This document shows, one piece after another, positions 3,105 to 12,909 of a DNA stretch of 12,909 bases (its first letter is position 1; every line of letters starts with the position of its first letter). Source of the stretch: a bacterium (GTDB taxonomy: Bacteria > Desulfobacterota > DSWW01). Under the pieces are notes generated by a model. That model did no database searches. It was not told the origin of the DNA and saw nothing but the letters and a program-made list of their open reading frames with translations. The stretch covers positions 1 through 12,909 of the forward strand of contig JAUWSZ010000019.1 in assembly GCA_030609865.1 (NCBI GenBank), in the 5' to 3' direction. The position numbers were made by a program, and so were the translations under genes.

Positions 3105-3320
3105 GTGGCAAAGCCGGAAGAGATGTACCAGTGTCAGGCGACCGCAACTTGCGGCTACATTTACAACCCGGACCGGGGCGACAAGAAGGGCAAAATCCCC
3201 AAGGGGACCGCCTTTGCTGATCTGCCCGACGATTGGAAATGCCCGTCCTGCGGGGCCTCCAAGAAGTCCTTCAAGCCCCTGGCCGGACCCGGGTCGGTCA
3301 TGGAGGAGCAGAAGCAGTAG
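3105..3320 (+). CDS. Rubredoxin with enlarged first cysteine loop
   Basis: A 71-residue one-iron redox protein. The second ligand knuckle is canonical: 'DDWKCPSCGASKKSF' (C46, C49), preceded by 'GTAFADLP'. The first knuckle is unusual: 'YQCQATATCGYIYNP' places C10 and C16 five residues apart instead of two. From memory, sulfate-reducer rubredoxins with C-x4-C exist; five is longer still. The rest, including 'CGYIYNPDRGD', is typical, so iron binding by four cysteines remains likely, with altered potential or partner choice possible. It is about 15-20 residues longer than classic rubredoxin, mostly in a tail rich in Glu/Gln/Lys. The start is GTG at 3105 with GGGGGA six to seven bases upstream. 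It precedes the flavodoxin gene by 73 bases, and the pair probably acts in cytoplasmic electron transfer or oxygen/peroxide defence. Confidence 0.9.
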   Translation: MAKPEEMYQCQATATCGYIYNPDRGDKKGKIPKGTAFADLPDDWKCPSCGASKKSFKPLAGPGSVMEEQKQ

Positions 3321-3393
3321 GGCTTGCCGGGGAACTCGGAGTAACGAGCCTGGATCTTCAAAATTCCTACAAACAAGGAAAGGAGAATTCAGA

Positions 3394-3840
3394 ATGAGCA
3401 AGGTTTTGATCGCCTACGACAGCAGAACAGGGCACACGGGGAAGATGGCGGAATTCGTGGCGGAAGGTGTTCGAATGGGTGGAAACGAGGTCGACAGCAA
3501 GAAGATCAGTGAGCTCAAGAAGGAGGATGCCCTCAAAGGGTACGATGCATACGTTCTGGGCTGCCCGACATACCATCGGGACATGACCGGCGGAATGAAG
3601 ACCTTTCTGTTCCTGATGGAGAAGGCAGGACTCGAAGGAAAAGTAGGCGGCGCCTTTGGATCCTACACGCACAGCGGAGACGCCCCGGGCATCATCTACG
3701 ACACGATGGAGTACGTGTTCAAGATGAAGATGAGTGACCTTGGGTCCTTCAACCTGAAGGAGGCCCTTGTGGGTGACAAAGAGGGCCTTCGTGCCTGTCA
3801 GGACTATGGAAAGGGCATCAACGAGAAGCTCGAGAAGTAG
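3394..3840 (+). CDS. Flavodoxin (FMN-binding, short-chain)
   Basis: A complete 148-residue flavodoxin-fold electron carrier. The FMN phosphate loop is 'DSRTGHTGKMA' (T12-G-H-T15), matching T/S-x-T-G-x-T. The 50s loop is 'GCPTYHRDMTGGMKTFL' (57-72). The 90s loop is 'GSYTHSGDAPG' (89-99), with aromatic Y91 placed to stack on the flavin. The size and 'GGAFGSY' motif resemble the flavodoxin domain fused to diiron oxygen reductases (FprA/ROO), so this could be a detached partner of such an enzyme or a NAD(P)H:quinone-type flavodoxin. The start ATG has AGGAGA at good spacing; a longer reading from 3214 overlaps the rubredoxin gene and is rejected. Co-transcription with rubredoxin from the promoter at 2995 is likely, and control by iron through the Fur-like box is plausible because flavodoxins often replace ferredoxin under iron limitation. 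Confidence 0.88.
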   Translation: MSKVLIAYDSRTGHTGKMAEFVAEGVRMGGNEVDSKKISELKKEDALKGYDAYVLGCPTYHRDMTGGMKTFLFLMEKAGLEGKVGGAFGSYTHSGDAPGIIYDTMEYVFKMKMSDLGSFNLKEALVGDKEGLRACQDYGKGINEKLEK

Positions 3841-4224: not shown

Positions 4225-5277
4225 CTAAGGTGCGATTCTGGTGTTGGGATAGAAGGTGCTCCACGCGAACCAGAAGGCAGCCGTCACCCGCAGGGGTTCA
4301 AGGCGCTCGCCCTTTCGCTTCCCCTTTACACAGACGCCTCGATCGAGGTCCCAGATGGAACCGGTCTCCTTGTCTGCGTATTCCCCCGGCTCGGGGCCCT
4401 GCCGGAAGGTAAGGCCTCCCTTGCCCCTCCGGGCGATGTAGGCCCGGACCCCGTTGTCGGATGTACGGACGACGAGGACCTCCCTTTCGCCGAGGGTCGC
4501 CCCAAGAAGGTCACCCTTTTTCATCTTCTTGTCCGGAACGGCAAGAGAGTGGGGCCCGTCCGTGATACCGTGGACAAGCTCCTTGCCGGGCATCCGGTCC
4601 CTCAGCCATTCTGTTCGAAACAGCCCATATCTGGTGGGGTCCTTGAAGTAGGCCTCGTAGTTGGAAGAACGGATTTCCCTGGACTTCTTCAGCAGCTTCG
4701 TGTCCGGATGGGTTCGGTGCCAGTCCGACCACGTTGTCTGCACGACGGGAACCGTGGAGAGGGTGAGCCCCTTGTGTTCTCCCGCCAACCCCTCGCCGGT
4801 GATGTGGCTCCAGAGGTTCCCGGTCTCGAGATCCTGCATGACCAGGCCATTGCGCCAGAGCTTGCCGGAGACGATCAGGGTAAGCGGCTGCTTGTCGACT
4901 CGACGGACGTAGACTACGCCCGTGTGGCAAAGGGGTCACCAGGTAACGGCGATCGGAGTCCCGCCGATCTGGTCGTTGACGATTTCGTGGGCATCGAGTT
5001 GCCAGAGAGAATAGGCCCTCGTTTCCCCGCCGTAGAGAAGCCCCATCACGGGCTCGTCCGGGGACATCTGCTGGCGAGCTTCTTCGCCCGTTACGTATAC
5101 GGGATCCATGATAGCGGGAATAGCCCCCGGGGGCAGCACCTCGTAGATGGGATCACCGTCGACAACCGGGAACACTCCCGCCGGGTTCTCGCTGCCGTAG
5201 CCGTTCGAGACGAGAAGAACCGCGCCTATGAGCGCGGTGGTTGCCACTAAGAAGACATGTTTGAATTTGAATTCCAT
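4225..5277 (-). CDS. DUF3179 selenoprotein candidate (UGA-encoded Sec114, U-x-x-C motif)
   Basis: A 350-residue DUF3179 protein read through one in-frame TGA at 4938-4936. Residues 1-28 carry a basic start and a hydrophobic segment (about 8-24), a signal peptide or anchor, so the domain should face outside the cytoplasm. Family motifs before the TGA: 'LPPGAIPAIMDPVYVTGEEA', 'RAYSLWQLDAHEIVNDQIGG' and 'TPIAVTW'. The TGA is codon 114, then P-L-C-H-T-G, so the normal CPLC becomes U-P-L-C (U114, C117). Motifs after it: 'VSGKLWRNGLVMQDLETG', 'NLWSHITGEGLAG', 'HRTHPDT' and C-terminal 'FWFAWSTFYPNT'. No frame shift is needed and the final stop is TAG. A SECIS-like hairpin follows the TGA. The ATG has GGAGGA close upstream. 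DUF3179 has no settled function; a U-x-x-C pair suggests thiol/disulfide or peroxide chemistry, which is inference. The gene lies behind the ECF sigma/anti-sigma pair, with a matching promoter. A nonsense mutation or read error is the alternative. Confidence 0.85.
4903..4923 (-). promoter_or_regulatory. Candidate bacterial SECIS element
   Basis: On the mRNA, ACGGGCGUA pairs with UACGUCCGU (nine pairs including one G-U) around a GUC tip. The stem begins 12 bases after the UGA and the tip lies 21 bases after it, inside the window used for SelB-dependent elements. The tip context A-GUCU-A resembles the GGUCU loop of the E. coli fdhF SECIS, and the G-U wobble sits where a helix irregularity is tolerated. 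This is hand folding only. Confidence 0.6.
4936..4938 (-). other. In-frame UGA codon, probable selenocysteine insertion site
   Basis: This TGA separates two same-frame segments of 113 and 236 codons of one DUF3179 protein and replaces the first Cys of the CPLC motif. TGA is used as a true stop in the thioesterase, RuvC-like, ThDP enzyme, lutA, lutB and lutC genes, so general reassignment of TGA is excluded. Confidence 0.8.
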
Positions 5278-5300
5278 TCTTCCTCCATGCGAAAGCCGTC

Positions 5301-5319
5301 ATCCCCGCGAAGCGGGGAT
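5301..5319. repeat. Palindromic intergenic repeat (CCCCGC-GAA-GCGGGG)
   Basis: ATCCCCGC (5301-5308), GAA, GCGGGGAT (5312-5319): a perfect 8-bp palindrome of the widespread 'CCCGCGAAGCGGG' dispersed-repeat type. It lies 24 bases upstream of the DUF3179 start, in its predicted 5' leader, just before the ribosome site, so the hairpin could influence translation. Confidence 0.6.
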
Positions 5320-5359
5320 CCATTGGCGCAGTGTGCTGATGGGCTCCCCCTCATCCTGA

Positions 5360-7004: not shown

Positions 7005-7970
7005 ATGGGCAGCAAAGACCCCCAACTTGGCTTGGTGCAGCTCACGGATCGAGCTTACGGGTACATGCAAAGGGATGAGGGGCTCGGGTGGAGCAACGCA
7101 GGGTTGATCGCCGGGAAGGATGAGGCACTCCTGATCGATACCCTCTTCGATCTGCCCCTGACAAAGAAGATGCTCGACGCAATCGCGTCCAGGGTCGGGA
7201 AGCCCATAAGACGCGTGGTGAACACGCATCACAATGGTGATCACTTCTGGGGAAACCAATTGGTCTCGGATGCGGAAATCATCGCCCATCGAATGTTCCG
7301 ATCCGAGATGATGAAGATGACGCCCGAGGTGAGCCAGGCCGTCATGACCGCGCCGGCCGACACCCCTGCTGTGGCCTTGCTGCAGAAATCGCTCGCACCG
7401 TTCGATTTCTCCGGGATCGAGCTCACGCCGCCGACCCTTGTCTTCGACAAGCACCTGACCCTGTACATCGACGATCGGGAGGTGGAGCTGATCCACGTGG
7501 GTCCCGCACACACCTCTACGGACGTTATCGTGTTTTTCCCGGAAGAGAGGGTGCTGTACGCGGGCGACATCATCTTTCGTCTGTGCACGCCGATCGGTTG
7601 GGAGGGAACGTTCCACCATTGGACCCTGGCACTCGATCGAATCGTGGAACTCGGCCCGGAGATGATCGTGCCGGGCCACGGTCCCCTGTGCGGACTGGAA
7701 GGGGCGACCGAGATGCGTGAGTACCTCCAGTACGTGTACAAGGAAGCCAGGGTCTGTTTCGAGCGGGAGATGACAGAGAAGGAGGCGGCCAGGCGGATCG
7801 ACCTCGGTCCTTACGCGGAGTGGACCGAGCCGGAGCGGCTCATCTTCAATGTCGCACGGGCCTATCGGGAGTTCCGTGGTGAGCCCCACGACAAACCGGT
7901 GGATTTCTTCGAGATGGCCGAGGTGATGGCCGAAATGAAGCGATCCCACTGCGCCCGGGAAATGCAATAG
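7005..7970 (+). CDS. MBL-fold metallohydrolase with an H-to-N change in the metal motif
   Basis: A 321-residue metallo-beta-lactamase-fold hydrolase. The metal motif is 'NTHHNGDHFWGN' (T74-H-H-N77-G-D79-H80): compared with the usual T-H-x-H-x-D-H, the second histidine is asparagine. The remaining ligands are present: H169 ('HVGPAHTSTD'), D188 ('YAGDIIF') and H225 ('VPGHGPL'). The N-terminal 'SNAGLIAGKDEALLIDT' is the usual strand leading to the metal site. I recall MBL subgroups carrying T-H-x-N-G-D-H, so the enzyme is probably active with an altered first metal site, not dead. The tail (about 240-321) is helical and may shape the substrate pocket. The ATG has AGGAG seven bases upstream. It lies 114 bases before the ThDP enzyme gene, on the same strand. 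The substrate (ester, thioester or lactone) is unknown. Confidence 0.85.
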   Translation: MGSKDPQLGLVQLTDRAYGYMQRDEGLGWSNAGLIAGKDEALLIDTLFDLPLTKKMLDAIASRVGKPIRRVVNTHHNGDHFWGNQLVSDAEIIAHRMFRSEMMKMTPEVSQAVMTAPADTPAVALLQKSLAPFDFSGIELTPPTLVFDKHLTLYIDDREVELIHVGPAHTSTDVIVFFPEERVLYAGDIIFRLCTPIGWEGTFHHWTLALDRIVELGPEMIVPGHGPLCGLEGATEMREYLQYVYKEARVCFEREMTEKEAARRIDLGPYAEWTEPERLIFNVARAYREFRGEPHDKPVDFFEMAEVMAEMKRSHCAREMQ

Positions 7971-8030
7971 CCCCCTGCCGCGGCCCGTGAATCCTCGCTG
8001 CAGCGCTCGGTTCTCCCAGCCTTCCGAAGC

Positions 8031-8059
8031 TTGACAAATCCCGGGATAGGGACACTCGA
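8031..8059 (+). promoter_or_regulatory. Weak possible promoter ahead of the ThDP enzyme
   Basis: A consensus TTGACA at 8031-8036 is followed after 17 bases by ACTCGA, a poor -10. If used, it would need an activator or another sigma factor. It would allow the ThDP-lut genes to be expressed apart from the MBL gene. Confidence 0.2.
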
Positions 8060-8084
8060 ACCGCGAACGTGAGGAGTAGGGAAC

Positions 8085-9791
8085 ATGGCAGAGAATCCGA
8101 TTTCCCTTTCCGGGGCACAAGTGCTCGCCGCCTGCCTCGAACGAGCCGACGTCCGGCGGATCTACGGGATCGTCGGCACCTCGAATATTGCATTCGTGAA
8201 CGCCCTTTACGACAAACAGGACAAGATCCGGTACGTTTCCACCCGGCACGAGCAGGTTGCTGCAAGCATGGCCGACATGGAAGGCCGGTTGACCGGCAGG
8301 CCGGGTGTCTGCCTGACCCACTCCGGGCCGGGCACGCTGAACGCCACGATGAGCATGGCGAACGCGTACAAGGACTGCTCTCCGCTCATCCTTATCTCCG
8401 GGGCGGTTCGGCCCGCCCTGAAAGGCTCTGACGGCCTGATCGAGGCGGATCACGGCAAGGTGATCGGACCGGTCTGCAAGGGCGCCTTCCAGGTCATGGA
8501 CCTGGCCGAGATGCCCGCTGTCTTCTCATCCGCCTACCGTCTTGCCATGACCCCGGCAAAGGGGCCCGTGCTGATCGAAGTCCCGGAGAACCTCTGGCAG
8601 GCCGAGGGGAAGGTCGACCTGGATGCCATCGATCTCACCCTGCCGTCCACCGGGGCAGTGGATCAGGCTGCCGTGGAGGCGGTGTTTCAGGCCTTCATGG
8701 ATGCGGATCGACCGGTTCTGCTCACGGGTGCGGGCGTCTTCGAGGCGGATGCGGCTCCGCTTGTGCTGCGGCTGGCCGAGGAGGCAAATGTTCGGGTTGT
8801 CACCACCGGAAACGGGCGAGGCGTGATTCCCGAGTCTCACGACCTGTGCCTTGGCCGTGTCGGATTCTTCGGAAACCCGGTGGCAGACAAGGCGCTCGAG
8901 CAGGCGGATCTGATCCTGGGGCTCGGGTGCTGCCTGTCGGACCTGATCACCTGGGAGTACACGGTCGAGCTCGCCGGCAAGGTGGTCATCGTGAATGCCG
9001 ACCCGGAGGCGGCCTTGATACAGCCTGAGTCGTACCTCGTGGATCTCCAGTTCGTGGGTGGGGATGTGGGGCTGTTCCTGGACGAGTTTGTCCGGCGGTT
9101 CGATGCCGATCCTGTGAGAAAATCGGACGACTGCATGGATTCGATCCTCCCGGTGAAGGAGCAATGGGAGGCACAGCTCGGGGCGGCGATTGCTTCGGAC
9201 AGGACGCCTCTCTCGGCGGGCCGGGTGGTGAGGGCCCTGTCCGATCTTGCCCCCAAGGATGCGGTCTTCACGGGTGGGGCAGGGCTCAGCACCCTGTACG
9301 TAAACTGCTTCGCCCGGATCGAGGCCCCAAGGTCCTTTTTCGGGCCGAACAACTTTGGGGCCATGGGGTTCGGCTTCCCGGCGCTGCTCGCCTCGGGAAT
9401 CATCACGCCGGATCGCCCGTGCTTGTGCATCCTCGGTGACGGCGACTTCATGATGACCCTCCAGGACATCGAGACCGGGATTCGGGAAGGGGTGACCGGC
9501 GTCGTACTCATCCTGAACGACAACTGCTACCGGGCGCTCCGGTACAGCCAGCAAATCATATACGAGGGCAGGATCTACGGAACGGAGCACTCCAATCCGG
9601 ACTTCGTCAAGCTGGCCGACGCTTTCGGTGCTGCCGGCTACGTCATCGAGACACCGGACCAGATTGTGCCTGTGCTGAAGGAAGCGATGGGTTGTGGGAA
9701 ACTGGCGATCGTGGATGCGCGAATCGATCCGGAAGACCCTGCGCCGGCCAACATCGAGGCCATCCTGAAGATGCGCGGCCTTGCCGGATGA
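8085..9791 (+). CDS. Thiamine diphosphate-dependent enzyme (acetolactate synthase/2-oxoacid decarboxylase family)
   Basis: A full-length 568-residue ThDP enzyme with the three-domain order of the acetohydroxyacid synthase/pyruvate oxidase/benzoylformate decarboxylase group. The N-terminal Pyr domain (about 8-175) has 'STRHEQVAASMADMEGRLTG' with catalytic E56, which activates the cofactor. The central domain (about 190-340) includes 'RPVLLTGAGVF'. The C-terminal PP domain has the cofactor Mg motif from G451-D-G-D to N478-D-N ('LGDGDFMMTLQDIETG' ... 'LILNDN'). It would decarboxylate or carboligate a 2-oxo acid such as pyruvate in the cytoplasm. There is no small regulatory subunit nearby, and the setting next to lutABC argues against branched-chain amino acid synthesis. 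The ATG has GAGGAG about eight bases upstream. The exact reaction (decarboxylase, lyase or oxidase) cannot be told by eye. Confidence 0.88.
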   Translation: MAENPISLSGAQVLAACLERADVRRIYGIVGTSNIAFVNALYDKQDKIRYVSTRHEQVAASMADMEGRLTGRPGVCLTHSGPGTLNATMSMANAYKDCSPLILISGAVRPALKGSDGLIEADHGKVIGPVCKGAFQVMDLAEMPAVFSSAYRLAMTPAKGPVLIEVPENLWQAEGKVDLDAIDLTLPSTGAVDQAAVEAVFQAFMDADRPVLLTGAGVFEADAAPLVLRLAEEANVRVVTTGNGRGVIPESHDLCLGRVGFFGNPVADKALEQADLILGLGCCLSDLITWEYTVELAGKVVIVNADPEAALIQPESYLVDLQFVGGDVGLFLDEFVRRFDADPVRKSDDCMDSILPVKEQWEAQLGAAIASDRTPLSAGRVVRALSDLAPKDAVFTGGAGLSTLYVNCFARIEAPRSFFGPNNFGAMGFGFPALLASGIITPDRPCLCILGDGDFMMTLQDIETGIREGVTGVVLILNDNCYRALRYSQQIIYEGRIYGTEHSNPDFVKLADAFGAAGYVIETPDQIVPVLKEAMGCGKLAIVDARIDPEDPAPANIEAILKMRGLAG

Positions 9792-9799
9792 ACCTGTCC

Positions 9800-9827
9800 T
9801 TGTGAATGCGGAAGCTGAATGTCACAA
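9800..9827. promoter_or_regulatory. Inverted repeat TTGTGA-N16-TCACAA before lutA
   Basis: Perfect 6-bp half-sites at 9800-9805 and 9822-9827 in the 80-base gap before lutA. The halves resemble CRP half-sites, but CRP spacing is six bases, not 16. The right half also overlaps a CACAAT that could serve as a -10, with TTGTGA as a -35 at 17 bases. It may be an operator or a weak promoter. Confidence 0.3.
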
Positions 9828-9871
9828 TGGATTTATAGGTCAACAGCGACCCATCATGAGCGAGGGACCCC

Positions 9872-10612
9872 ATGAGCAACCCTTCCCTATTCATTCCCTG
9901 TATGGTTGATCTCTTCCTCCCTGAAATCGGAGAGGCATGCCTTCAGATGCTCCGGCGGCTGGATCTCGCCCCGGTCTACCATCCGGAGCAGACCTGTTGC
10001 GGCCAGCCGGCGATTCATGCCGGGTACGTGAGAAAGGCCAAGGATTCGGCCAAGCACTTCATCGAGGTCTTCGGGGAAGACGAGGCGGTGGTCTGTCCCT
10101 CCGGCTCGTGCGTCTGCACGGTCAAGGATCGTTATCCGGAGCTCTTGCAGGATGAATCGGATTGGCTTCGCCGGGCAGAGGACCTGGCCCCGCGGGTCTA
10201 TGAGTTCTCCCAGTACCTCGTGGATGTTCTCCATGTCGAAGATGTGGGTGGCGCCTATGCAGGGAAGGTGGCCTATCACGAATCCTGCCGGGTTCTGAAC
10301 GGGTTGGGGGTTTCCGAGCAACCGAAGAAGCTGATTCAATCCGTGAAGGGAGCCGAGCGGGTTCCCATGCAGGACGCCGAGGTCTGTTGCGGGTTTGGCG
10401 GTGAGTTCTCCACGAACTACCCGGAGATATCCGAGGCCCTGGTCGACGAAAAAGTGGCCAACTACCTGGCCAGTGGGGCCGATGTGCTGGTGGCCTGTGA
10501 CCCGGGTTGCCTGCTCAATATCGGAGGATACCTGAAACGGAATCATCCGGAAAAGAAGGCCGTGCACATCGCCAGTTTTCTGGCGGAAGCCAACCAGGGT
10601 GGGAAGAGATGA
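9872..10612 (+). CDS. lutA: LutA-type Fe-S oxidoreductase subunit (CCG domains)
   Basis: A 246-residue protein with two cysteine-rich CCG domains, the form found in LutA/YkgE of the LutABC lactate oxidation complex and in heterodisulfide reductase HdrB-like subunits. The first domain has 'TCCGQPAIHAGY' (C42-C43-G) with 'CPSGSCVC' (C75, C80). The second has 'AYHESCRVLNGLG' (C139), 'EVCCGFGGEFS' (C172-C173-G) and 'VACDPGCLLNI' (C209, C213). These bind a cubane or non-cubane Fe-S centre. The N-terminal 'LFIPCMVDLF' is the usual LutA start. ATG 9872 has GAGGGA about five bases upstream. The stop overlaps the lutB start as ATGA (10609-10612), so the two are translationally coupled. Together with LutB and LutC it should oxidise L-lactate to pyruvate at the cytoplasmic face. 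Confidence 0.9.
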   Translation: MSNPSLFIPCMVDLFLPEIGEACLQMLRRLDLAPVYHPEQTCCGQPAIHAGYVRKAKDSAKHFIEVFGEDEAVVCPSGSCVCTVKDRYPELLQDESDWLRRAEDLAPRVYEFSQYLVDVLHVEDVGGAYAGKVAYHESCRVLNGLGVSEQPKKLIQSVKGAERVPMQDAEVCCGFGGEFSTNYPEISEALVDEKVANYLASGADVLVACDPGCLLNIGGYLKRNHPEKKAVHIASFLAEANQGGKR

Positions 10613-12063
10613 AGATCAAGTCAGAGCAATTCAAGGAAGTGGCCAGGGAGGAGTTGAAGACGAGGCACACCCGTGCTCATCTGGATCTTGTGGGCCTCGT
10701 CCTGAGAGAGAGGCGCAAGGCCACGATGGGTTTGTTCCCAGACCCCGCGGCAGCCCTCGACCTGGGAAGGGCGATTCGGGCCGAATCGGTCGAAAGACTG
10801 CCGGAACTCCTCGAGGAATTCGAGAAGAACGCCACCGCCAAGGGCGCAGTCGTTCTCTGGGCCCGAGATGGCCGCGAAGCGAATGATCACATCCTGAGGA
10901 TCGCCAAAGAACGCAACGTGCGGCTCGTCACCAAGGGGAAATCCATGGTGACCGAAGAGACGGCCCTCAACGATGTCCTGGTCGAGAACGGGCTCGAGGT
11001 CTTCGAGACGGATCTCGGCGAGTTCATCATCCAGCTCCTCGGAAGACCCCCATACCATATTCTAGGCCCTGCGGCGAACATACCCGTCCAGGAGATATGC
11101 GATCTCTTCCTGGAAAAGGGCATCATGAAGGAGCCGACCCTGGATCCGATCGAGCTCGGTCACGCTGCAAGGGTTTTCCTGAGAGACAAGTTCCATTACG
11201 TTGAAATGGGCATCACCGGCGTGAACATGGCGGTCGCTGAGACAGGCACGATCATCAACGTGGAAAACGAGGGGAACATACGGCTCACCAAGTCGTCTCC
11301 GAGGATACAGGTGTCGGTGATGAGCCTGGAGAAGGTCGTGCCCACGATGCAGGATGCCATGCACATGCTCCGGCTCCTGTGCAGGAACAGCACGGGCCAG
11401 CTGCTCGGCTCCTACGTATCGATGGACAGCGGTCCGAACAAGGGCAGCGAGGTGGATGGCCCCAGGGAACTCCACATCGTCATGCTCGATAACGGCCGCT
11501 CGAGCTTCTACCAGGACCCGGAGGCTCGTGAGATTCTGCGCTGCATCCGCTGCGGGGCGTGCATGCTCGAGTGTCCCGTGTACGGAAAGATCGGTGGATA
11601 CCCGTACGGCTGGGTCTATTCGGGCCCTATGGGGCAAGTCATCAATCCCCTGATCCTCGGTCAAGCGAGGACCCAGGATCTCTATAGGGCCTGCACGCTC
11701 TGTGGGGGCTGCAAGGTCGTTTGTCCTGCCGGGATCGATCATCCACAGAAGTTTCTATCTTACAGGGCCAAGGATGTGGAAGGGGACTCGACTTACAGGG
11801 CGAAACAACGGCCGTGGACAGAGTCGACTTTCATGGAGATGTTCACCTGGGCCACGAAGCGACGCTGGCGATGGGACCTGGGCATCAAGGCCGCCCGGCC
11901 TTTCATCAACAGGCATGTGCAAGAGGGATTCATCCGAGGAATGAAGGGTCCCCTCGAAGGGTGGTTCAAGAGCCGGGACTTTCCTGCCATGGCTCGGAAG
12001 ACATTCCATGACAGGATGCGGGAGAGAGGGACAAAGGGCCCCGATGGCCCGTCGAAGTCCTGA
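10609..12063 (+). CDS. lutB: LutB-type LUD domain/4Fe-4S protein
   Basis: A 484-residue LutB/YkgF homologue of usual length. Residues 60-300 form the LUD domain, with 'LVTKGKSMVTEETALNDVL' (106-124), 'GITGVNMAVAETGTIINVENEG' (201-222) and 'HIVMLDNGRS' (289-298). The C-terminal part is a double-cluster ferredoxin domain: 'CIRCGACMLECPVYGKIGG' (C312, C315, C318, C322) and 'CTLCGGCKVVCPAGID' (C362, C365, C368, C372), enough for two 4Fe-4S clusters. The final 100 residues are basic and include 'MFTWATKRRW', typical of the family tail. The frame is open upstream to 10507, but the ATG at 10609 overlaps the lutA stop and starts exactly where the family starts, so it was chosen. It is the likely electron conduit of the Lut complex. 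It is 38 bases from lutC. Confidence 0.92.
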   Translation: MKIKSEQFKEVAREELKTRHTRAHLDLVGLVLRERRKATMGLFPDPAAALDLGRAIRAESVERLPELLEEFEKNATAKGAVVLWARDGREANDHILRIAKERNVRLVTKGKSMVTEETALNDVLVENGLEVFETDLGEFIIQLLGRPPYHILGPAANIPVQEICDLFLEKGIMKEPTLDPIELGHAARVFLRDKFHYVEMGITGVNMAVAETGTIINVENEGNIRLTKSSPRIQVSVMSLEKVVPTMQDAMHMLRLLCRNSTGQLLGSYVSMDSGPNKGSEVDGPRELHIVMLDNGRSSFYQDPEAREILRCIRCGACMLECPVYGKIGGYPYGWVYSGPMGQVINPLILGQARTQDLYRACTLCGGCKVVCPAGIDHPQKFLSYRAKDVEGDSTYRAKQRPWTESTFMEMFTWATKRRWRWDLGIKAARPFINRHVQEGFIRGMKGPLEGWFKSRDFPAMARKTFHDRMRERGTKGPDGPSKS

Positions 12064-12101
12064 TGAGCAGCTTACGGACAGTAGAAGGGAGATAGGGGAA
12101 G

Positions 12102-12791
12102 ATGTCTAAGACAGCAAAAGACGAGATTCTGGACAAGCTGAAGGCCGCCCCACAAGCACAGCCGCCTCCCAGGCCGATCATGCCCCCGTTGAATGAACTG
12201 GCGTGGAACAAGGAAGAGATGATCGAGAAGTTCGTCGAAAATCTGACCCTCCTCGGGTGTGCTGTTCATCGGGTCCGCGATTCCGAGGAGACCCTGGACA
12301 AGCTGACCGAAATCTCCCGGGCAGAGGGGCTGACCAGGGTCCTGGTCTCAGAGGATGATGTGGTTGCGCCGCTGGATCTACCCGGGTGGGGCAAGAAGAG
12401 CAACATCGAGGTCTTCACCCCGAAGGATTGCCGGGACCGGGAGGAGTTCAAGAGGGTCGCCTTCGATGAGGTGCAGGCCGGCGTTACGGGCGTTGACTTT
12501 GCCGTGGCCGAGTCGGGCACGCTCTGCCTGATCCATGACGAGAGCCAGCCACGCCTTGTTTCCCTTGCCCCGATACGACACATTGCGGTCGTTCCCGTAG
12601 ACAGGGTTCGCCCGGTTTATGAGAGCGTGACAGACAAGATATTTGAGGCGGGAGGGAAGGCCCCCAGCCATCTCACGTTCATCTCCGGACCGAGCATGAC
12701 GGGTGACATACAGGCCACGCTCTTCACCGGGATGCACGGGCCCAAGACCGTAACCGTCATCCTGGTGGAAAAGATGTCCAGCACTGTTTGA
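12102..12791 (+). CDS. lutC: LutC-type LUD domain protein
   Basis: A 229-residue LutC/YkgG homologue, a single LUD domain without Fe-S cysteines. Key motifs are 'DEVQAGVTGVDFAVAESGTLCL' (about 125-146), 'RLVSLAPIRHIAVVPVDRV' (about 153-171) and the C-terminal 'HLTFISGPSMTGDIQATLFTGMHGPKTVTVILVE', where the P-S-x-T-x-D-I and H-G-P elements are the family hallmark. The N-terminal 30 residues form a charged helix and a Pro-rich linker. The start ATG follows AGGGGAAG; a GGAGAT lies further up. It completes a lutA-lutB-lutC set in the standard order. The TGA stop is followed by simple-sequence DNA; no terminator is visible before the window edge. Confidence 0.92.
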   Translation: MSKTAKDEILDKLKAAPQAQPPPRPIMPPLNELAWNKEEMIEKFVENLTLLGCAVHRVRDSEETLDKLTEISRAEGLTRVLVSEDDVVAPLDLPGWGKKSNIEVFTPKDCRDREEFKRVAFDEVQAGVTGVDFAVAESGTLCLIHDESQPRLVSLAPIRHIAVVPVDRVRPVYESVTDKIFEAGGKAPSHLTFISGPSMTGDIQATLFTGMHGPKTVTVILVEKMSSTV

Positions 12792-12797
12792 GGCGAT

Positions 12798-12829
12798 CTC
12801 GTCCTCGTCCTCGTCGTCGTCCTCGTCGA
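12798..12829. repeat. GTC/CTC simple-sequence tract
   Basis: A 32-base run of CTC and GTC triplets begins seven bases after the lutC stop. It is a low-complexity tract, triplet-periodic, that reads as poly-Asp/Glu on the minus strand. No gene is supported there. The remaining bases to 12909 show no clear feature. Confidence 0.6.
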
Positions 12830-12909
12830 TCATGCACTGCGCGCTTTCTTCACACACATGAGTGGATGTCGTGAATCTGTTTCGCCGTTTCGTATGCATG
12901 GACACATTC

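What the first reader, a model, noticed from the sequence alone, without database searches (positions are those of the whole stretch)
4225..5277. DUF3179 gene with an in-frame UGA at the conserved Cys: probable selenoprotein
Two same-frame segments join across a single TGA into one 350-residue DUF3179 protein. The TGA falls precisely on the first Cys of the conserved CPLC motif, giving U-P-L-C, the classic Sec/Cys exchange in a redox C-x-x-C. Family motifs flank it on both sides, the gene ends with TAG, and TGA is a normal stop in neighbours. Sequence facts are seen directly; family motifs are from knowledge of DUF3179; Sec insertion and redox function are inference. I cannot say whether DUF3179 selenoproteins are already catalogued.
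Basis: partly seen in the sequence, partly recalled or inferred. Interest (0 to 1): 0.93.

Follow-up and report, generated by a model that had tools for sequence, protein, structure and literature searches.

The report
DUF3179 selenoprotein on Rieske-like fold
An uncultured bacterium carries a DUF3179 gene whose in-frame UGA codon lies exactly where relatives in several phyla have either UGA or cysteine and is followed by a conserved RNA hairpin, so it is predicted to encode a selenocysteine protein; the family is already on published selenoprotein lists, but its fold (predicted to resemble cluster-less Rieske domains) and its job are not established.

The parts
4225..5277 (-). DUF3179 gene, 350 codons, one in-frame TGA; predicted selenoprotein
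4936..4938 (-). TGA, codon 114, predicted Sec codon
4903..4923 (-). Predicted bSECIS hairpin: 9-bp stem (4923-4915 with 4911-4903), apical loop GUC at 4914-4912, 21 nt after the UGA
5197..5265 (-). Hydrophobic N-terminus (about residues 5-27), likely export signal; read by eye, no signal-peptide program run
   Evidence: helix 4-25
4669..5172 (-). N-terminal repeat (residues 36-203) holding codon 114; predicted Rieske-like fold
4228..4596 (-). C-terminal repeat (residues 228-350), no Sec/Cys at the matching place; predicted Rieske-like fold
5282..5286 (-). Shine-Dalgarno-like GGAGG upstream of the ATG
   Evidence: by eye

Best explanation
The gene at 5277-4225 (minus strand) is an unbroken DUF3179 frame whose in-frame UGA at codon 114 is very likely decoded as selenocysteine with the help of the hairpin 21 nt downstream, giving a predicted exported protein that likely works through one reactive selenol. 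Shown by sequence: the frame, UGA/Cys exchange in one column across phyla, the hairpin and its covariation in UGA genes only, and the internal duplication. Inferred: that SelB and tRNA-Sec read this UGA in the window's own organism (machinery seen only in the nearest relative found), export, and the chemistry. Predicted by modelling: two Rieske-like halves without the [2Fe-2S] ligands, with residue 114 at the end of a strand in the N-terminal half. Committed mechanism (untested): a selenol redox centre served by the highly conserved His97-Glu98, not a Cys-Cys or Sec-Cys pair, since +3 is dispensable. The confidence given is for Sec decoding; for the single-selenol redox mechanism it is about 0.5.
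For: Column 114: 55 UGA, 69 Cys, 9 other, 2 without the column, of 135 loci (3 loci fetched twice removed from 138). Of 120 listed (302 found) database relatives, 102 begin after the site, as gene callers would cut them; 16 span it with Cys, 1 with Glu, 1 with Arg. Hairpin with stem of 7 or more, G in the first two loop bases, 16-37 nt from the UGA: 42 of 55 UGA, 6 of 69 Cys, 0 of 9 other. Covariation in UGA rows: 81.5% of cells paired, 7 of 9 pairs changed on both sides, 0 of 500 shuffles as high; in Cys rows 40.9% and no excess; RNAalifold finds the same stem unprompted. Nearest relative found, G001: UGA, tRNA-Sec 73.5 bits, SelB 365, SelA 590. Across the 9 UGA genomes: SelA 9, tRNA-Sec 8, SelD 8, SelB over cut-off 5 of 9. 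In G002, genome of the closest Cys locus, none of these 4 was found.
Against: No genome is held for the window. No SelD was found in G001, and SelB misses its cut-off in 4 of 9 UGA genomes; completeness of these genomes is not given. The window's hairpin alone folds no better than 52 of 200 shuffles, and mean folding energy does not separate UGA from Cys genes (-13.2 vs -13.4). Over all genomes tested tRNA-Sec does not separate UGA from non-UGA carriers: 67 of 81 vs 75 of 96, Fisher p 0.57. In control (b) one of five measures is higher when slid by -1 (31 cells against 29). Window versus L001: third-position conservation at the hairpin (17 of 21) is matched by other stretches. Function has no direct evidence, and no conserved neighbour was found.
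Confidence: 0.9

Rival explanations
1. Nonsense mutation, pseudogene or sequencing error: the TGA is damage and the gene is dead or misread.
For: A single base difference separates TGA from a Cys codon; one relative (L045, same gene as L204) does carry an extra TGA where relatives have Trp.
Against: The same column is TGA in 55 of 135 loci from several phyla; the frame stays open for 236 codons after it with similar GC3 (0.73 before, 0.78 after); the hairpin covaries.
Confidence: 0.02
2. UGA is read through or recoded as an ordinary amino acid (for example Trp) rather than Sec.
For: Read-through is all that the DNA shows.
Against: The column is never Trp in the rows read: UGA 55, C 69, S 6, H 2, N 1; E and R once each. 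TGA ends other genes of the window. SelA, SelB and tRNA-Sec occur in the nearest relative found.
Confidence: 0.03
3. Two separate products: a 113-residue protein ended at the UGA and an independently started C-terminal protein.
For: The 204-aa ORF 4839-4225 has its own ATG, and databases list such fragments.
Against: The cut falls inside the N-terminal repeat; start sites of the fragments differ among relatives, as gene callers' artefacts would; Cys relatives such as L002 are one chain.
Confidence: 0.03
4. Sec is real but works as a metal or cofactor ligand (perhaps with His97) rather than as a redox catalyst. (A rival on function only, so its odds are not shared with the three above.)
For: Predicted Rieske-like fold, a scaffold of metal proteins; His97 in 130 of 131 rows, with 16 residues between it and the site in 125 of them, like the Rieske His-to-Cys spacing; the +3 residue is dispensable.
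Against: Profile and structural register put residue 114 before box I, not on a cluster ligand; no CxH...CxxH in any of 138 rows; Ser, His or Asn replace it in 9 rows.
Confidence: 0.35

Closest known systems
DUF3179 selenoprotein family (PF11376, listed UxxC/T, one Sec; credited to Zhang & Gladyshev 2007, NAR 35:4952)
   Same: Same Pfam family, same Sec motif U-x-x-C, one Sec per chain. Seen as table rows in PMC9312934 and PMC13188914 (passages found by term search); the 2007 paper itself is not held.
   Different: In the passages I saw there is no fold, no SECIS analysis of this family and no +3 Ala/Ser/Val form.
Rieske [2Fe-2S] domain proteins (e.g. naphthalene dioxygenase ferredoxin 2qpz, carbazole dioxygenase ferredoxin 2de5)
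   Different: The cluster motif CxH...CxxH is absent; residue 114 lies outside the ligand positions; profile comparison with Rieske is weak for the C half (probability 66, pair E 5.6e-5) and nil for the N half (probability 1).
NirD-type nitrite reductase small subunits (2jo6, 3c0d, 4aiv)
   Same: Rows in both fold comparisons; recalled as Rieske folds that have lost the cluster, which is the same situation.
   Different: No Sec, no tandem duplication, cytoplasmic (all recalled).
UxxC thioredoxin-like selenoproteins
   Same: Sec in a U-x-x-C motif (review table).
   Different: Here the +3 Cys is dispensable and the predicted fold resembles Rieske domains.

Membership tests
DUF3179 (PF11376) | Profile score above Pfam's cut-off over the whole domain | tested here: met
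   251.3 bits against 27, profile 3-292 of 292
Bacterial selenoprotein | In-frame UGA aligned with Cys of homologues | tested here: met
   55 UGA and 69 Cys of 135 loci
[quoted passage not shown]
   9-bp stem, loop GUC, 21 nt; covariation. Prediction only
Bacterial selenoprotein | selA, selB, selC, selD in the same genome | tested here: inconclusive
   Own genome not held; G001 has SelA, SelB, tRNA-Sec, SelD not found
Bacterial selenoprotein | Se present in the protein | not testable with these tools
   needs 75Se labelling or mass spectrometry
Rieske protein | Rieske fold | tested here: inconclusive
Rieske protein | C-x-H-x(15-17)-C-x-x-H cluster ligands | tested here: not met
   0 of 138 rows with a relaxed spacer of 10-25
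Dithiol (C-x-x-C) oxidoreductase | Second Cys conserved | tested here: not met
   +3 is Cys in 26 of 55 UGA and 44 of 69 Cys genes

The most novel reading that the evidence does not exclude
DUF3179 is a Rieske domain that lost its iron-sulphur cluster, was duplicated, and took up a single exported selenol (Sec114 with His97-Glu98) as its reactive centre: a selenium enzyme on a Rieske scaffold, carried as Sec in at least five phyla and exchanged for Cys, apparently where the selenium machinery is gone; single-repeat lipoprotein-like forms suggest that the N-terminal half suffices.
Probability: 0.35. Interest if true: 0.7.

Novelty: new member of a known kind. Interest (0 to 1): 0.45.

Why it matters
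It supports with independent lines a selenoprotein family that I found in print only as a table entry, shows that databases start most listed close relatives after the UGA (102 of 120), and turns a domain of unknown function into testable claims: a cluster-less Rieske-like fold, one sufficient selenol, an N-terminal half that may stand alone. If true, it would be a setting for selenium chemistry that I have not seen described.

Tried and rejected
Rejected: (1) damage, (2) ordinary read-through, (3) two products (see rivals). (4) Sec on a Rieske cluster ligand: 16 residues lie between His97 and the site in 125 of 131 rows, like the Rieske His-to-Cys spacing, but the half-to-half alignment, the C-half-to-Rieske alignment and the structural ranges (ranges only, no residue pairs are printed) put residue 114 in the hairpin before box I, so I read the spacing as coincidence. 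(5) Multi-Sec DUF3179: 14 loci taken from partial or multi-stop matches were read; in 13 the family profile is matched only up to positions 156-204 (N half), with a UGA at the site, and the extra TGAs lie at or after the likely end; the 14th (L204) is a two-repeat form with a second TGA at a conserved Trp. (6) A conserved operon: 12 window proteins were compared with 157 loci, most with only 1.5 kb flanks or less: the flavodoxin recurs in L001 (where two other genes lie between), ECF sigma relatives of 24-34% identity in 8 loci, an MBL match of 23% in one, the rest in none. Whether 8 is more than chance for so common a family was not tested. 20 neighbour ORFs of nine relatives show no shared Pfam family except histidine kinase/receiver domains (three loci) and an FlpD-domain gene in two Krumholzibacteriia, L005 and L007.

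Null or weak results: window hairpin alone z -0.55; ARAGORN and Rfam at gathering threshold found nothing in the window; PDB sequence search with the single protein found nothing; the whole-family profile gave 9 hits up to E 10, 7 of them Rieske proteins, best E 0.11, but profiles of each half gave no Rieske hit (two CyaY, two lectins); NCBIfam gave no family for this protein; tRNA-Sec does not separate UGA from non-UGA carriers overall. The UTLC comparison (11 of 12 UGA genomes with tRNA-Sec against 0 of 8 Cys genomes) was chosen after one search was seen and concerns two sister clades, so it counts as one event. Foldseek support was weak for the N half (best E 0.038) and modest for the whole (best E 7.7e-4). 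No thioredoxin-fold row was listed; that is no proof of absence.

Rows left out: A1 holds 57 of the 121 proteins held; A4 holds 60 N halves (a script's pick under 62% identity, capped at 60), A5 34 of 60 C halves picked; A6 25 of 28 Rieske domains extracted from 30 loci (three with long spacers dropped). Only fetched loci (best-scoring, at most 30 a call) were read, not every match.

Papers: search listings; passages by term search in PMC9312934, PMC13188914 and PMC9230427; no paper read whole. 'DUF3179' occurs in 3 held papers; none of the passages seen mentions a Rieske fold. A search for selenoprotein with Rieske found 37 papers, of which the 15 listed are by title not on DUF3179. This is not proof that the fold is unpublished.

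Full report
What is there. On the minus strand, 5277-4225, one frame of 350 codons runs from ATG to TAG with a single internal stop, TGA at codon 114 (4938-4936). The read-through protein is DUF3179 over its whole length (PF11376, E 1.7e-74). Of the 13 genes listed, 6 end in TGA and only this one holds an in-frame stop.

Column test. One scan of genome contigs gave 27 loci. PF11376 scans of the phyla of four of those genomes (395, 347, 80 and 82 genomes; matches in 44, 112, 36 and 25) gave 110 more loci, the best-scoring ones, not every match. With the window that is 138 rows, 135 after removing three loci fetched twice (L107, L109, L134). In the column of codon 114: TGA 55, Cys 69, other 9 (Ser 6, His 2, Asn 1), no residue 2. 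The UGA rows come from Thermodesulfobacteriota, Calditrichota, Acidobacteriota, Krumholzibacteriota and Eiseniibacteriota (titles). On a quick tree of 152 rows, with the site residue masked by pattern, Sec/Cys needs at least 7 changes; the window sits in a starred clade of 24 rows, 23 UGA and 1 Cys; the tree has no root, so gain and loss cannot be told apart. Of the 120 listed protein relatives (302 found) 102 begin after the site, 16 span it with Cys, one with Glu and one with Arg.

The second position. In the 55 UGA genes the residue three after the site is Cys 26, Ala 17, Thr 6, Ser 4, Val 2; in the 69 Cys genes Cys 44, Thr 25 (duplicates removed). Ala or Val does not occur with Cys at the site in these rows. 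So the conserved reactive group is the first residue, and a C-x-x-C pair is not the general mechanism.

SECIS. The window has a 9-bp stem with loop GUC 21 nt after the UGA. By one script (loop 3-9, G in the first two loop bases, 16-37 nt, at least 2 GC pairs) stems of 7 or more occur in 42 of 55 UGA, 6 of 69 Cys and 0 of 9 other genes; of 6 or more in 47, 12 and 2; of 5 or more in 51, 26 and 5. The named stem pairs in 81.5% of cells in UGA rows, with 7 of 9 pairs changed on both sides; all five measures exceed all 500 shuffles, and four of five exceed every slid version (the count of doubly changed cells is 31 at slide -1 against 29). In Cys rows 40.9% pair, with no excess over shuffles. RNAalifold, given only the UGA alignment, returns the same stem with 7 pairs. 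Against: the single window hairpin is not unusually stable, mean energies of the two groups are nearly equal, and related rows are not independent.

Machinery. The window's genome is not held. The nearest relative found, Syntrophobacteria MAG G001, matches 5.6 kb of the window at 88% DNA identity and its DUF3179 piece at 81% with TGA in place; it has tRNA-Sec (73.5 bits), SelB (365 bits) and SelA (590 bits), no SelD found. Over the nine UGA genomes: SelA 9, tRNA-Sec 8, SelD 8, SelB above cut-off 5, with partial SelB-like matches below it in two more (G005, G010). The closest Cys locus of that call (L002, 51%) lies in G002, where none of the four was found. Over all genomes tested, however, tRNA-Sec is common in both groups: UGA 8 of 9, 36 of 45, 23 of 27; non-UGA 16 of 18, 25 of 30, 34 of 48, so presence alone does not discriminate (p 0.57). 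For 15 of the 27 UGA genomes and 24 of the 48 non-UGA genomes the state was taken from the tool's stop count, not read by me; weaker copies may be hidden because one search's list was cut. Within one Acidobacteriota subfamily (U/C-T-L-C) 11 of 12 UGA genomes have tRNA-Sec and 0 of 8 Cys genomes do, a post hoc choice of two sister clades.

How it likely works. SelB would bring Sec-tRNA to the UGA at the hairpin; the likely exported product would carry one selenol in its N-terminal half, 17 positions after the conserved His97 (His 99% and the following Glu 93% of rows). Whether it reduces a substrate or binds a metal is open; I favour a selenol redox centre. No gene neighbourhood helps.

Known or new. 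DUF3179 is a listed selenoprotein family (PMC9312934, PMC13188914; passages), so this is a new member. The Rieske-like fold, the +3 Ala/Ser/Val forms and the single-repeat forms were not in the passages I saw.

Noticed in passing
window 6753-5487, minus strand: ECF sigma factor gene overlapping an NrsF-type anti-sigma gene by 23 bases, same strand and about 210 bases upstream of the DUF3179 gene. ECF sigma relatives (24-34% identity) lie in 8 of 157 DUF3179 loci compared, NrsF in none; a regulatory link is possible, not tested.
   Followed up: partly
window 12792-12868 and 5301-5320: Intergenic stretch with partial copies elsewhere in the relative's genome (G001 C394 and C606), and a GC-rich palindrome between NrsF and DUF3179: perhaps dispersed intergenic repeats.
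   Followed up: no
window 7005-12791: MBL-fold hydrolase, acetolactate-synthase-like TPP enzyme and LutA/LutB/LutC-like genes in one direction: perhaps a lactate or 2-oxoacid pathway.
   Followed up: no
window 3105-3840: Rubredoxin followed by a short-chain flavodoxin, an electron-carrier pair; the flavodoxin is 94.6% identical in L001.
   Followed up: no
L110, L111, L113-L116, L119, L121 and L022: DUF3179 forms with Ser, His or Asn at the Sec/Cys site (9 of 135); 8 of them form one clade from the phylum of G005: possibly inactive or differently used.
   Followed up: partly
P0006 and P0009: Relatives (52% and 50%) with Glu or Arg instead of Sec/Cys at the site; not known whether real or assembly errors.
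   Followed up: no
genomes G869, G871 (phylum of G003): 9 and 10 DUF3179 matches per genome (some are fragments of one gene), with and without TGA.
   Followed up: no
L150-L161: In the U-T-L-C subfamily the downstream hairpin sits closer to the UGA (about 14-15 nt) and seems to keep pairing in Cys relatives L142-L149; seen by eye, not counted.
   Followed up: no
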